A stretch of 53,159 nt of DNA. Source: Paludibacteraceae bacterium. GTDB lineage: Bacteria; Bacteroidota; Bacteroidia; Bacteroidales; Paludibacteraceae. This document shows, piece after piece, positions 49,416-52,770 of this stretch (positions are counted from its first letter, which is position 1; the number at the start of each line of letters is the position of its first letter). The position numbers and the translations under genes are program-made. Where the stretch lies: positions 1 to 53,159 of the forward strand of contig JAIKXR010000032.1 in NCBI GenBank assembly GCA_024683975.1. Direction: 5' to 3'. The notes below the pieces were generated by a model. The model was not told the origin of the DNA. It saw only the letters and a program-made list of their open reading frames with translations, and did not search any database.

Positions 49416-49489
49416 GGTTTGGTAGCTCAGTTGGATAGAGCAACAGCCTTCTAAGCTGTGGGTCGGGGGTTCGAATCCCCCCCAAATCA
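49416..49489 (+). tRNA. tRNA-Arg (TCT)
   Basis: The acceptor stem is GGTTTGG/CCAAATC with one G-T pair. The anticodon stem is ACAGC/GCTGT with loop CTTCTAA (anticodon TCT), and the T arm is GGGGG TTCGAAT CCCCC. The discriminator is A and CCA is not encoded. Confidence 0.94.
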
Positions 49490-49512
49490 CAAAGTTTATC
49501 TTTCAAAATAAA

Positions 49513-49542: not shown

Positions 49543-49631
49543 TTCTCTTATCTGTCGCTGTGTTTTTTTTTACGACTTATCTTCGATTTTATGAGAAGGA
49601 GGCAGGAGAGAGGACTTTTTGGGGGGGATTG

Positions 49632-49663
49632 TTTGCGGAAGTGGAGAAAGGTGGGTATCTTTG
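49632..49663 (+). promoter_or_regulatory. promoter of the type IIG gene
   Basis: TTTG at 49632-49635, 20 bases, TATCTTTG at 49656-49663. It ends 24 bases before the ATG at 49687, which rules out the upstream in-frame start at 49591. Confidence 0.82.
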
Positions 49664-49686
49664 CGGGCGAAATTTACAAGAGGTTT

Positions 49687-52600
49687 ATGAACGCAATAGA
49701 GCAAAAGAAAGCCGCCAGACAATTTGCCGGAAAATGGCAAGGCAAAGGATATGAGAAAGGAGACACCCAAAAATTCTGGCTGGAACTCCTGCAGTCGGTT
49801 CTCGGCATTGACAACCCCTATGATTTCATTGAGTTTGAAGACCGGGTAATGGTGGAGAGTACCAACTTTATGGACGGTTTCATACCCGCTACCAAAGTGC
49901 TGATAGAGCAAAAGTCTGTGGAGAAAGAACTTGGCAAAGGAATCCGCCAGTCGGACGGCTCAACGCTCAATCCGTTTCAACAAGCCAAGCGTTATATTGT
50001 GGGTCTGCCGGTCAGCAGACACCCCCGATGGGTTGTGACCTGCAATTTCCGCGAGTTCCGTGTACACGACATGGAGCATCCGCACGATGAGCCGTATGTT
50101 GTTCTCCTTAAAGACCTTGAAAAAGAATATAACCGCTTGCAATTCCTTGTGGACGAGGGCAACGAGCATCTGAAGAGAGAGCAGGAAGTGTCTGTCAAAG
50201 CGGGCGAACTGGTCGGGATGATCTATGACAAGTTACTGGAGCAGTACTGGAGCGCAGGCGGCCCGCCTGCTGACGATATGCACGCGAGCCGCGTGCGCTC
50301 CGACATCCTCCGATCCCTTAACATCCTCTGTGTCCGCCTCGTCTTCTGCCTTTACGCCGAAGACGCAGGACTCTTCCCGTCCCGGACATCCTTCCACGAC
50401 TACCTTGCCCCTTATCGCCCGCAGGATATCCGCCGCGCATTGATTGACCTCTTTGAGGTCCTTGACACACCCTTATCCGGCCGTGACCCCTATCTCAGTC
50501 CCGACCTCGCCGCCTTCCCCTACGTCAACGGAGGACTGTTCGGTAACTCGCTTGGAGCGCGGTCGTCCTCGCCCGCATCAATCCTCATCCCCAATTTCAC
50601 CGATGACCTCAAAACACTCCTGTTGGAGAAAGCGAGTGCCGATTTCGACTGGAGTGAGATTTCTCCTACCATCTTTGGAGCGGTGTTTGAAAGCACGCTG
50701 AATCCCGAAACGCGGCGCAGCGGGGGTATGCACTACACCTCCATTGAGAACATACACAAAGTCATTGACCCATTGTTCTTGGATGACCTGCGCAAGGAGT
50801 TTGATGTAATAATGCAGGCGAGCCGCCTGCGCTCCGACAAACGACAACGCTTACTCGCCTTCCAAGAAAAACTCGCATCACTCACATTCTTCGACCCTGC
50901 CTGCGGTTCAGGTAATTTCCTCACAGAGACTTACTTGTCGCTTCGTCGGTTGGAGAACAAGGTCATACAAGCCATGTTCGACGGGGCGAACATACTCACT
51001 TTCGATACGCTGATAAAAGTGAATATCAGTCAGTTCTACGGCATAGAGATCAACGATTTTGCCTGCACTGTGGCAAAAACAGCTTTATGGATAGCGGAGA
51101 ACCAGATGATGCAGCAGACATCCGCCATTGCAGGTCGTCCGATGGATTTCCTCCCGCTCAAGACCAACGCCTATATCCACGAAGGCAACGCTCTGCGAAT
51201 GGAGTGGGAGGAGTTATTCAGGAGCGCAAGCGTCCCGCTTGCGGAAAATGACGCGACCGAGACGGTCACGCTCCCGGCGTACCACTCCCCCGACTACAGA
51301 ATCGGCAGCACGCCGTTTGGGGGCTACAGACTGCAGAGCAAAGAGCAAAAGGAGGAAATGCTCGCCATCTATACCGATGAGAATGGCAAACCTTACAAGA
51401 CAGCAGGCAAGATTGACTATGTGGCGGCATGGTATATGAAAGTTGCACAGTTGATGTGTGCCGCCAGGAGCGCAAGCGTCCCGCTTGCGGAAACCGCGAC
51501 CGGGACGGTCACGCTTCCGAACATAAAAGCCGCCCTCGTCAGCACCAACAGCATCACACAGGGCGAGCAGGTGGCAGCCATCTGGCGGCCGCTGATGGAA
51601 CGCTACGGCGTGCAGATTGACTTCGCCTGGCGCACGTTCCGCTGGGACTCCGAAGCCGACATCAAAGCGCATGTGCATTGTGTGATTGTCGGGTTCTCTA
51701 TTGGAGCGCAGGCGGCTCGCCTGCTTAATGATAATGCACGCGAGCCGCGTGCGCTCCGACAAATATTCCTCTCCGACAGCCAGGTCATCCAAGCCCGCCA
51801 TATCAACCCTTATCTGATGGACGCGCCCAATGTGTGGATAGAGAGCAGAAACAAACCCCTGTGCGATGTGCCGGAGATGCTCAACGGAGGCAAGCCCGTG
51901 GAAGGGGGATTCCTTATTCTGACACAGGATGAACGGGACGAACTGCTTCACAAAGAGCCGCAGGCGGCACCGCTTTTGCGTCCGTATATGATGGGCAAGG
52001 ATTTTATTGACCGAAAGCCGCGCTGGTGTCTGTGGCTTGTCAATGCCAGTCCCAGACTGCTCCGTGAGTGTCCGCTTGTGCTGAAACGCATTCAGGCGGT
52101 AAGGGAGTACCGGTTGCAAAGCCCCAAAGAAGCCACACGCCGTTGTGCGGAAACGCCGGTGCTTTTTGCCGAAGTGAGGGAATGTCCGTCGGATTATGTG
52201 GCGATACCCAAAGTGTCGTCCGAAAACAGGAGGTACATCCCGATGGAGTATCTGCCGAAAGACATCATCGCAGGCGACAAGCTGTTTATGATTCCACAAG
52301 CCACACTCTGCCATTTCGGCATTCTGACCAGCAACGTGCACATGGCTTGGATGCGTGCCGTATGCGGAAGATTGGAAATGCGATACAGTTACAGCAACAC
52401 GATAGTGTATAACAACTTCCCATGGCCTGTCGGAGCGCACGCGGCCCGCGTGCAGGATAATGATGCATTCGAGCCGAATGCGCTCCCAGCCGATGCGTTC
52501 CCGGACGATGCGTTCCCAGATGAGCAGGCGAGCCGCCTGCGCTCCCGGATAGAGTTCACCGCCCAAGCTATACTTGATGCCCGCGCCTTATACCCGGATT

Positions 52601-52770
52601 GCAGCTTTGCCGACCTCTATGACGAGGTGGCGATGCCGCCGGAGTTGCGCCGCGCCCATCAGGACAACGACCGCGCCGTGATGGAAGCGTATGGTTTTGA
52701 CTGGCGGACAATGACCGAGAGCGACTGCGTGGCGGAACTCTTCAAGCTGTACCAGGCAATGACGAAATAA
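49687..52770 (+). CDS. MmeI-like type IIG restriction-modification protein, with repeat inserts and altered motif IV
   Basis: A 1027-residue single-chain restriction-modification enzyme. The N-terminal nuclease signature is D63-x10-E74-Q-K76. A helical connector follows, with SAM motif I in FFDPACGSGNF (401-411) and GIEINDFACTVAKTALWIAE. The target-recognition region begins near 690 (DSQVIQARHINPYL). Family members have about 920 residues; the excess matches seven or more in-frame inserts coded by a palindromic DNA element (residues about 188-205, 290-297, 377-383, 512-529, 594-611, 673-691, 916-953). Where family members have NPPF or NPPY (motif IV), this protein has STPF (541-544), followed by the normal GGYRLQSKEQKEEM. 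The methylase may therefore be inactive. The gene is monocistronic. Confidence 0.88.
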   Translation: MNAIEQKKAARQFAGKWQGKGYEKGDTQKFWLELLQSVLGIDNPYDFIEFEDRVMVESTNFMDGFIPATKVLIEQKSVEKELGKGIRQSDGSTLNPFQQAKRYIVGLPVSRHPRWVVTCNFREFRVHDMEHPHDEPYVVLLKDLEKEYNRLQFLVDEGNEHLKREQEVSVKAGELVGMIYDKLLEQYWSAGGPPADDMHASRVRSDILRSLNILCVRLVFCLYAEDAGLFPSRTSFHDYLAPYRPQDIRRALIDLFEVLDTPLSGRDPYLSPDLAAFPYVNGGLFGNSLGARSSSPASILIPNFTDDLKTLLLEKASADFDWSEISPTIFGAVFESTLNPETRRSGGMHYTSIENIHKVIDPLFLDDLRKEFDVIMQASRLRSDKRQRLLAFQEKLASLTFFDPACGSGNFLTETYLSLRRLENKVIQAMFDGANILTFDTLIKVNISQFYGIEINDFACTVAKTALWIAENQMMQQTSAIAGRPMDFLPLKTNAYIHEGNALRMEWEELFRSASVPLAENDATETVTLPAYHSPDYRIGSTPFGGYRLQSKEQKEEMLAIYTDENGKPYKTAGKIDYVAAWYMKVAQLMCAARSASVPLAETATGTVTLPNIKAALVSTNSITQGEQVAAIWRPLMERYGVQIDFAWRTFRWDSEADIKAHVHCVIVGFSIGAQAARLLNDNAREPRALRQIFLSDSQVIQARHINPYLMDAPNVWIESRNKPLCDVPEMLNGGKPVEGGFLILTQDERDELLHKEPQAAPLLRPYMMGKDFIDRKPRWCLWLVNASPRLLRECPLVLKRIQAVREYRLQSPKEATRRCAETPVLFAEVRECPSDYVAIPKVSSENRRYIPMEYLPKDIIAGDKLFMIPQATLCHFGILTSNVHMAWMRAVCGRLEMRYSYSNTIVYNNFPWPVGAHAARVQDNDAFEPNALPADAFPDDAFPDEQASRLRSRIEFTAQAILDARALYPDCSFADLYDEVAMPPELRRAHQDNDRAVMEAYGFDWRTMTESDCVAELFKLYQAMTK
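50249..50301 (+). repeat. palindromic element copy a (full, 53 bp)
   Basis: The outer arms GGAGCG (50249-50254) and CGCTCC (50296-50301) enclose two perfect or near-perfect palindromes (50254-50270 and 50281-50296) joined by a short AT-rich linker. It encodes SAGGPPADDMHASRVRS in frame. Confidence 0.85.
50554..50576 (+). repeat. palindromic element copy b (left half, degenerate)
   Basis: This begins GGAGCGCGG and contains a decayed palindrome GGTCG TCC TCGCCC. It encodes GARSSSPA. Confidence 0.6.
50814..50835 (+). repeat. palindromic element copy c (right half)
   Basis: 22 bases, GCAGGCGAGCC then GCCTGC and GCTCC. They are the exact reverse complement of the left half of copy f. It encodes QASRLRS. 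Confidence 0.85.
51221..51274 (+). repeat. palindromic element copy d (full, 54 bp)
   Basis: The arms GGAGCG and CGCTCC enclose GCAAGCG TCC CGCTTGC and a second dyad built on ACCG AGA CGGT. It encodes SASVPLAENDATETVTLP and sits just before the altered motif IV. Confidence 0.85.
51467..51518 (+). repeat. palindromic element copy e (full, 52 bp)
   Basis: The left half is identical to copy d over 24 bases; the right half ends CGCTTCC, a one-base deviation. It encodes SASVPLAETATGTVTLP. Confidence 0.85.
51703..51757 (+). repeat. palindromic element copy f (full, 55 bp)
   Basis: The arms GGAGCG and CGCTCC enclose a left palindrome at 51708-51724 and a right palindrome at 51736-51752, with the linker TTAATGATAAT. 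The right half is identical to that of copy a. It is read in another frame than copies a, d and e and encodes GAQAARLLNDNAREPRALR. Confidence 0.88.
52432..52486 (+). repeat. palindromic element copy g (full, 55 bp)
   Basis: Same layout as copy f, with linker AGGATAATGAT. The palindrome arms differ in sequence but are compensated on both sides. It encodes GAHAARVQDNDAFEPNAL. Confidence 0.88.
52487..52545 (+). repeat. 15-bp duplication plus element copy h (right half)
   Basis: GATGCGTTCCC occurs twice with a 15-bp period (encoding ADAFP and DDAFP). It is followed at 52524-52545 by a right half-element identical to copy c. It lies immediately after copy g, so element-derived DNA has been duplicated or inserted repeatedly here. 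Confidence 0.75.

What the first reader, a model, noticed from the sequence alone, without database searches (positions are those of the whole stretch)
50249..52545. A double-palindrome DNA element has entered one coding sequence about eight times, always in frame
Copies a, d, e, f and g share one layout: GGAGCG, a palindrome of about 17 bp, a 9-11-base AT-rich linker, a second palindrome and CGCTCC, in total 52-55 bp. Half-copies b, c and h are single arms. The palindrome arms differ between copies but remain self-complementary, which implies selection for structure or repeated transposition of variants. The element is open in at least two frames (GAQAAR... and SASVPLA...), so it adds neutral peptide loops. 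Coding-region palindromic elements are known for Rickettsia (RPE); I do not know this one as a described family. This is the strongest candidate here for an undescribed mobile system.
Basis: partly seen in the sequence, partly recalled or inferred. Interest (0 to 1): 0.85.

Follow-up and report, generated by a model that had tools for sequence, protein, structure and literature searches.

The report
Transposons riding inside phage-defence proteins
The repeated hairpins in this restriction-enzyme gene are copies of a small palindromic element whose likely transposase sits, read in the same frame, inside a second restriction-enzyme gene of the same genome; the same nesting recurs in phage-defence genes of many bacterial phyla, so these transposons likely use bacterial immune genes as carriers.

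Summary
The gene at 49591-52770 is an MmeI-like restriction-modification enzyme with 13 hairpin units (five inverted pairs, three singles) at seven sites: five between Pfam domains, two within the methyltransferase domain; the 923-aa homologue P0014 lacks them. Genome-wide, 38 of 42 exact units lie in restriction-modification genes (about 0.5% of the sequence). The only Y1 transposase found, a REP-associated tyrosine transposase (RAYT), is flanked by units of the same type and inserted in frame just before the NPPY motif of a second (type IIG) enzyme, in one 1286-aa frame. The elements are therefore REP/BIME-like, with a GGAG head. In-frame intragenic REPs are known (PMC3733652); I found no paper on whole RAYTs nested in defence genes. 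The nesting recurs: 112 of 120 listed long RAYT-containing proteins are DNA-modification or phage-defence proteins, as are 14 of 18 nested RAYTs in a capped genome scan and 9 of 10 listed in Bacteroidota. Orthologues with RAYTs at different linkers are each other's empty site. None of 86 non-nested RAYT loci interrupts a tested defence gene; one nested case (L066) lacks the host's right half. Likely mechanism: in-frame passenger transposons travelling with immune genes. Main rival: a co-opted ssDNA-nicking domain.

The parts
49591..52770 (+). Host gene: MmeI-like type IIL restriction-modification enzyme (one 1059-aa frame; the database gives a 1027-aa form from a later start). Domains MmeI_N, MmeI_hel, MmeI_Mtase, MmeI_TRD, MmeI_C in order.
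   Evidence: PDB relative 5hr4 MmeI found with the uninserted homologue P0014
50249..50301 (.). Inverted REP pair (BIME) a, between MmeI_N and MmeI_hel; stands in place of P0014 residues 188-192
50554..50576 (+). Single degenerate REP unit b (LGARSSSPA), just after MmeI_hel
   Evidence: sequence; hairpin not better than shuffles
50814..50835 (-). Single REP unit c (QASRLRS), just before the methyltransferase domain; the same site holds a whole RAYT in P0175, P0217, P0218 and L058
51221..51274 (.). Inverted REP pair d, within the methyltransferase domain just before motif IV; the same site holds a whole RAYT in P0190, and the C38 gene of this genome has its RAYT just before motif IV as well
51467..51517 (.). 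Inverted REP pair e (second unit 1 mismatch), within the methyltransferase domain
51703..51757 (.). Inverted REP pair f, between methyltransferase and target-recognition domain; the same site holds a whole RAYT in P0040, P0130, P0143, P0163, P0194
52432..52486 (.). Inverted REP pair g, between target-recognition and C-terminal domain; the same site holds a whole RAYT in P0129, P0142, P0145, P0146
52478..52522 (+). 15-bp tandem repeat (about 3 copies) overlapping the end of unit g, in frame
   Evidence: family D3; longer in the paralogue on contig C159
52524..52545 (-). Single REP unit h (QASRLRS), same site as g

Best explanation
These hairpin segments are REP-type elements, likely mobilised by a RAYT transposase that is itself inserted in frame, between hairpins of the same type, in a second restriction-modification gene of this genome. 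Shown: the units, the RAYT, its inverted REP flanks, the open reading frames, the uninserted homologues, and the recurrence in defence genes of other phyla. Inferred: the RAYT, made as part of the host protein, cuts and joins single-stranded REP hairpins and so spreads REPs and itself. Inferred: insertions persist where they fall, in frame and in sense, in tolerant linkers, so that both host enzyme and transposase can still be made. Inferred: anti-phage DNA-modification genes (HmaB, type IIG including MmeI, type III Mod, HsdR, PglX, HmaA) are favoured carriers because they are long, modular and often passed between genomes, so the passenger moves with the immune gene.
For: RAYT identity: NCBIfam NF047646 over cut-off (91.7 vs 80 bits; IS200 model 31.6 vs 55) and PDB TnpArep 4er8. 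RAYT inside the 1286-aa C38 frame with REPs on both sides. 38 of 42 exact REP units of the genome lie in restriction-modification genes (with the frames). Hosts of nested RAYTs: 111 of 120 listed proteins by homology plus P0189 (N6_Mtase) = 112, the query's own protein included; 14 of 18 in the genome scan; 9 of 10 listed in the Bacteroidota scan. Empty sites: MmeI P0014; HmaB P0155 against P0167; IIG P0121 against P0182. 42 of 78 HmaB inserts at linker 188-205 and 33 at linker 474-494. RAYT and host similarity are nearly unrelated at the first linker (Spearman 0.09, 32 genes) and weakly related at the second (0.40, 23 genes). Inverted repeats above the best of 60 shuffles flank 17 of 18 testable nested and 52 of 59 testable standalone RAYTs. 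0 of 86 non-nested RAYT loci interrupt one of the defence genes used as queries. HUH and Tyr motifs, by strict patterns, intact in 101 of 119 nested proteins.
Against: No movement was observed. The host preference could partly be inheritance: host labels cluster on the RAYT tree, and only 3 separate HmaB changes are forced by well-supported branches. 8 of 120 hosts are not defence genes (AlaRS, two cobalamin-type, PurH, GGPP synthase, three radical SAM), nor are 4 of 18 (WYL regulator, SpoU, aminotransferase, acetyl-CoA synthetase). In L066 the frame stops 54 codons after the RAYT and no right half of HmaB was found, so that host is broken. The window's own enzyme has lost motif IV (GSTPF where 119 of 119 homologues have GNPPF), so retained activity does not explain its intact frame. 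Only one of the two arm types in the window (GTCCCGC) flanks the C38 RAYT; the GGCTCGCC type may belong to another RAYT, not found in this 94%-complete assembly. The SOD insert is not a clean empty-site case.
Confidence: 0.68

Rival explanations
1. The nested RAYT has been taken over by the host: an HUH nickase domain that adds single-stranded-DNA cutting to the defence enzyme, with REP peptides as mere linkers.
For: Catalytic motifs by strict patterns intact in 101 of 119 nested proteins; defence hosts in 112 of 120; HmaB-RAYT frames in several phyla.
Against: The same linkers take bare REPs without any RAYT (window); the RAYT sits at different linkers in orthologues; of 25 DUF1156 frames over 900 aa listed, two are known to hold a RAYT (G477, G162; one of 1184 aa was not examined); nested RAYTs are scattered among standalone ones (15 changes).
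Confidence: 0.14
2. No preference: REPs and RAYTs land anywhere and survive in any long modular gene; defence genes are over-counted because fused genes are inherited and shared and because the protein search saw only 707-2250-aa proteins.
For: Intragenic REPs occur in many gene classes (PMC3733652); non-defence hosts exist; label clustering on the tree.
Against: The two genome scans have no such length limit and still give 14 of 18 and 9 of 10; at least 3 forced changes each for HmaB, MmeI, IIG and HmaA; recurrent use of the same linkers by unlike RAYTs. The background share of defence genes was not measured.
Confidence: 0.12
3. The hairpins serve the restriction-modification genes: they mark exchangeable blocks, so that paralogous MmeI genes swap target-recognition segments by recombination between REPs.
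For: Window gene against the C168 paralogue: 90-100% identity in the 60-base bins at 51661-51780 and 52441-52560 around REP sites, 40-68% in the target-recognition segment between; pieces of several MmeI paralogues in the genome.
Against: Homologues differ in the same kinds of segment without REPs of this type (P0014 and P0040 sequences); only one pair of paralogues was profiled; no breakpoint was mapped.
Confidence: 0.05
4. Local duplication or ancestral protein sequence, no mobile element.
For: Paralogues in this genome share inserts at the same places.
Against: The homologue P0014 lacks the segments (alignment of 120); units of the same pattern stand in an unrelated IIG gene and in a superoxide dismutase gene, some letter for letter the same.
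Confidence: 0.01

Closest known systems
REP/BIME elements with RAYT (REPtron), GTAG class
   Same: Short hairpin with unpaired 5' tetranucleotide, head-to-head pairs (PMC3733652); RAYT flanked by two inverted REPs (Nunvar 2010, PMC2817692; passages read).
   Different: Head is GGAG, not GTAG/GTGG; few copies; 38 of 42 in restriction-modification genes and not intergenic; the nested RAYT has no stop at its end and runs on into the host frame.
Intragenic REPs of Opitutus terrae and others (Di Nocera 2013, PMC3733652)
   Same: REPs in frame in coding regions, dimers common, linkers suggested; DNA repair genes noted (section 15 and part 1 of 2 of section 17 read).
   Different: Restriction-modification or phage-defence hosts and a whole RAYT inside a gene do not appear in the parts that I read.
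TnpA-REP subclass 2.4 (Quentin 2018, PMC6006769)
   Same: Bacteroidetes and Cyanobacteria; REP insertions within the transposase gene itself (section 23 read).
   Different: [quoted passage not shown] The subclass of the C38 RAYT was not tested.
Rickettsia palindromic elements (RPE)
   Same: Palindromes read in frame inside proteins.
   Different: RPE-4 and RPE-6 are CGTC-tagged and CGTC repeats are listed without associated transposase genes (PMC3733652); no RPE sequence was compared here.
Inteins and homing endonucleases (recalled, no call)
   Same: A mobile coding unit in frame within a host protein gene.
   Different: No splicing known or tested; ends are REP hairpins; sites are mostly between domains.

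Membership tests
RAYT (REP-associated tyrosine transposase) | Scores over the curated family model and above IS200 | tested here: met
   NF047646 91.7-96.8 bits vs cut-off 80 for 4 nested RAYTs; IS200 model under its cut-off in all 4
RAYT (REP-associated tyrosine transposase) | HUH motif and catalytic Tyr | tested here: met
   invariant in the 9 sequences of A1; strict patterns present in 101 of 119 nested proteins, 14 of 19 nested and 34 of 62 standalone rows of the genome set
RAYT (REP-associated tyrosine transposase) | Gene flanked by two inverted REPs | tested here: met
   inverted repeat above the best of 60 shuffles in 17 of 18 testable nested and 52 of 59 testable standalone; 4 not testable
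REP/BIME | 20-40-bp hairpin units, single and in inverted pairs | tested here: met
   the single at 50554 is not a significant hairpin
REP/BIME | 5' head GTAG or GTGG | tested here: not met
   head is GGAG in the 42 exact units (fixed in the pattern; no GTAG-headed search was run) and GG-headed in many flanks; so filed as RAYT-associated REPs of another head, not as GTAG REPs
REP/BIME | Mainly extragenic | tested here: not met
   38 of 42 exact units in restriction-modification genes, one in SOD, three not assigned
REP/BIME | Cut and joined by the cognate RAYT | not testable with these tools
   needs biochemistry
IS200/IS605 insertion sequence | TnpA over the IS200 model cut-off | tested here: not met
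   31.6, 23, 25.4 and 24.1 bits vs 55
Rickettsia RPE | In-frame coding palindromes | tested here: met
Rickettsia RPE | RPE sequence families | not tested
   no RPE sequence was compared
Intein | Splicing motifs at both ends | not tested
   no Hint or intein family among the Pfam hits of P0121 and P0040, which is not a dedicated test
MmeI type IIL restriction-modification enzyme | Five MmeI domains in order | tested here: met
MmeI type IIL restriction-modification enzyme | Methyltransferase motif IV NPPF | tested here: not met
   GSTPF in the window, GNPPF in 119 of 119 homologues: related by descent, probably methyltransferase-dead

The most novel reading that the evidence does not exclude
A transposon lifestyle not yet described: RAYT-REP elements that live as stop-free, translated domains inside anti-phage DNA-modification proteins. 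They enter the same linkers again and again in unrelated enzyme families and phyla, and spread with the immune genes that carry them.
Probability: 0.5. Interest if true: 0.93.

Novelty: new variant of a known kind. Interest (0 to 1): 0.85.

Why it matters
RAYTs are thought of as mostly resident transposases whose REPs lie between genes. Finding them read in frame inside DNA-modification and phage-defence proteins of at least nine phyla (NCBI names) links two fields: it would give RAYTs a route between genomes, raises the question whether the fused HUH nickase helps or burdens immunity, and may explain part of the 'unexpectedly long' transposase annotations that an earlier survey set aside. It also supplies natural insertion maps of which linkers of MmeI, HmaB, HsdR and IIG enzymes can take a 20-kDa domain.

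Tried and rejected
Clean empty site in superoxide dismutase (C107): the 96%-identical relative G050 is 12 nt shorter in that loop, but the loop varies among the relatives shown; not counted as proof. Structure models: P0163 (MmeI + RAYT) mean pLDDT 61.7, pTM 0.38, uninformative. Window protein mean pLDDT 65.0, pTM 0.45; REP residues lie in its low-confidence stretches in 98 of 131, other residues in 165 of 896, and one of seven blocks (MQASRLRS) in none: weak support for loops only. No fold search was run on these models. Other GGAGCG pattern hits on C25, C59 and C94 were not followed beyond a hairpin check of C25. REP-mediated swapping of target-recognition segments: a lead only. Six-frame openness as an adaptation: by a rough estimate of mine not unusual for GC-rich 22-mers, dropped. 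I judged a locus nested from frame lengths and Pfam; of the loci with long upstream frames and a short downstream one, L040, L073, L031 and L083 were scanned, showed only the RAYT domain and were counted as standalone; the others were counted as standalone without a scan. Among the 18 nested, L036 and L089 begin at a contig start and L066 lacks its right host half. The HsdR hosts in G268 and G418 are near-identical at the insert and may be one event. The share of defence genes among all long genes was not measured.

Full report
WHAT IS IN THE WINDOW. The gene at 49591-52770 (+) is one open frame of 1059 codons with the five MmeI domains in order. PADLOC models place the related nested protein P0040 among type IIG restriction enzyme-methyltransferases. 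Inside the window gene lie 13 units of the form GGAGCG + hairpin: 11 exact matches to GGAGCGYRNNCGKYNCGNNYGC, one with one mismatch and one degenerate unit at 50554. The reversed pattern has no exact match in the genome. Folded as single DNA strands, the pairs and two of the singles are more stable than most shuffles; the single at 50554 is not.

INSERTS, NOT ANCESTRAL. The homologue P0014 has 923 aa and lacks every segment. The seven insert sites map to its residues 187-193, 274-279, 353-362, 487-494, 548-554, 613-620 and 841-851. Set against the Pfam borders, five lie between domains and two within the methyltransferase domain, one of these just before motif IV. In an alignment of 120 homologues (the window's own included) inserts of other proteins, made of several unrelated repeat families, fall at the same few places. 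A modest AlphaFold model agrees at least in part for six of the seven blocks: 98 of 131 REP residues lie in stretches under pLDDT 50, against 165 of 896 others.

WHERE ELSE IN THIS GENOME. Of 42 exact units in 2.3 Mb, 11 are in the window gene, 17 in pieces of MmeI paralogues that end at contig ends (C168 8, C159 5, C47 2, C97 2), 10 in a second restriction-modification gene on contig C38, one in a superoxide dismutase gene (C107), and three in places not assigned to a gene (C12, C86, C141) (with the frames). The 38 units in restriction-modification genes lie in frames that sum to about 11.5 kb, roughly 0.5% of the sequence. Paralogues inherit inserts, so these are fewer events than copies. 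The elements are rare in kin: 5 of 120 genomes, the window's own among them, have an exact match to the pattern.

THE TRANSPOSASE. The only Y1_Tnp match of the genome is on C38. It is a RAYT: NCBIfam NF047646 at 91.7 bits against a cut-off of 80, the IS200 model under its cut-off, and TnpArep 4er8 as best PDB relative. It lies at residues 596-780 of a 1286-aa frame that is a type IIG enzyme with Eco57I and TaqI_C domains. The insert stands just before motif IV (NPPY at residue 838), with REP units of the window's pattern on both sides; elsewhere in the same gene stand two units letter for letter the same as two of the window. There is no stop codon at either end. Host, REPs and transposase make one reading frame.

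HOW GENERAL. A search with the RAYT part of this protein, which by design sees only proteins of 707-2250 aa, gave 228 hits; I analysed the 120 listed, the query's own protein included. Host parts by homology: 68 HmaB (DUF1156), 14 MmeI, 14 type III Mod, 11 IIG/TaqI_C, 4 HmaA, and 9 others, one of which (P0189) has an N6 methylase domain: 112 of 120. In 18 the RAYT is joined in frame to a host part: 11 HmaB, 2 type III Mod, 1 MmeI, a WYL regulator, a SpoU methylase, an aminotransferase and an acetyl-CoA synthetase. Two of the 18 begin at a contig start (L036, L089), and in L066 the frame ends 54 codons after the RAYT and no right half of HmaB was found. By record title the defence-gene cases come from nine phyla by NCBI names: Chloroflexota, Acidobacteriota, Pseudomonadota, Bacteroidota, Chlorobiota, Kiritimatiellota, Tectomicrobia, Armatimonadota and Myxococcota/Deltaproteobacteria. 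In 395 Bacteroidota genomes, listed RAYT matches over 50 bits have frames of about 110-330 aa or over 400 aa; the 10 long ones sit in HmaB (3), HsdR (3), IIG (2, one being this genome), PglXI (1) and RecG (1). The same genomes show what uninserted DUF1156 proteins look like: of 25 listed frames over 900 aa, 22 measure 906-1094 aa, two known to hold a RAYT 1218 and 1288 aa, and one of 1184 aa was not examined.

EMPTY SITES AND HOT LINKERS. HmaB proteins P0155 and P0167 are orthologues with the RAYT at about residue 198 in one and 495 in the other, each smooth where the other is interrupted. The IIG enzymes P0121 and P0182 do the same at residues 596 and 251. Of 78 HmaB inserts (67 proteins and 11 loci, at least one gene in both), 42 sit at reference residues 188-205, 33 at 474-494 and one each at 252, 346 and 463. 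In MmeI, whole RAYTs occupy four of the seven sites that hold bare REPs in the window. RAYT similarity hardly follows host similarity: Spearman 0.09 over 32 genes at the first HmaB linker and 0.40 over 23 at the second (55 of the 78 were used, and some are fragments). So unlike RAYTs have come to the same linker, or have replaced one another there.

RECURRENCE AND INTEGRITY. On a tree of 81 RAYTs the nested state needs 15 changes, at least 6 forced by well-supported branches, and is not clearly clustered (as low in 53 of 500 shuffles). With 116 of the 120 nested proteins added (196 rows, the C38 row entering as P0121) host labels are clustered, with 42 changes; at least 3 are forced for HmaB, MmeI, IIG and HmaA each, 1 for type III Mod. 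Both inheritance of fused genes and repeated entry are therefore at work. HUH and Tyr motifs by strict patterns are intact in 101 of 119 nested proteins, 14 of 19 nested rows of the first tree and 34 of 62 standalone ones. Inverted repeats above the best of 60 shuffles flank 17 of 18 nested and 52 of 59 standalone RAYTs that could be tested. None of 86 non-nested RAYT loci interrupts one of the defence genes used as queries; three have a relative elsewhere in the flank (L034, L068, L088).

MECHANISM. Shown: anatomy, frames, empty sites and host bias in the examined sets. Known from others: E. coli TnpA-REP cuts and recombines single-stranded REPs in vitro, at CT beside the hairpin, with the tetranucleotide needed (PMC8266576, passages read). 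Inferred: the nested RAYT acts in the same way on GGAG hairpins, and the element persists mainly in frame and in sense in permissive linkers, because then host enzyme and transposase are both made. Inferred: defence genes are good carriers since they move between genomes. Against a simple 'host function is kept' reading, the window's own copy has GSTPF instead of GNPPF (119 of 119 homologues) at motif IV and is probably a dead methyltransferase with an intact frame, and L066 is a broken host.

WHAT IS KNOWN. In-frame intragenic REPs were described, with DNA repair genes noted and linkers suspected (PMC3733652, section 15 and part 1 of section 17 read). RAYTs flanked by inverted REPs were described in PMC2817692 (passages). 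REP insertions inside RAYT genes of subclass 2.4, and the discarding of long fusion proteins, are in PMC6006769 (sections 14 and 23 and passages). My searches for RAYTs nested in restriction-modification or defence genes found no such paper (open-licence library only, at most 20 papers listed per search, and apart from the four papers named here seen as listings only). The parts are thus known; the nesting in defence proteins, its recurrence and its linkers appear new.

Noticed in passing
window 51304-51318: Methyltransferase motif IV reads GSTPF in the window gene; 119 of 119 homologues have GNPPF. The copy is probably catalytically dead although its frame is open.
   Followed up: partly
window 49416-49490: A tRNA-Arg (tct) gene lies about 100 bp upstream of the MmeI-like frame, a common kind of integration spot.
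   Followed up: no
L007, L008, L009, L010 (contigs C168, C47, C97, C159): Pieces of several MmeI paralogues sit at contig ends; window and C168 copies are 90-100% alike around two REP sites but 40-68% in the target-recognition segment between.
   Followed up: partly
L010:4629-4823 and window 52478-52522: 15-bp in-frame tandem repeats adjoin REP ends; longer in the C159 copy.
   Followed up: no
P0006-P0008, P0053, P0093: The same MmeI linkers hold inserts of several unrelated peptide repeat families (for example GSQIKQINQ, VETQRAVSLQ, KVESLITDD), so they look like general insertion hot spots.
   Followed up: partly
L057:3102-7298: The nested HmaB frame begins with about 150 residues matching the start of HmaA, which looks like an HmaA-HmaB fusion or deletion.
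   Followed up: no
L140, L145, L147: RAYT in frame in a type I restriction subunit (between HSDR_N and the SWI2/SNF2 part in L140), with another repeat type (NGGQECPPS, GGLENPP).
   Followed up: partly
L013:5814-5835: A single REP unit lies in a loop of an Fe/Mn-type superoxide dismutase gene (named from its sequence, no family scan); the 96%-identical relative is 12 nt shorter there.
   Followed up: yes
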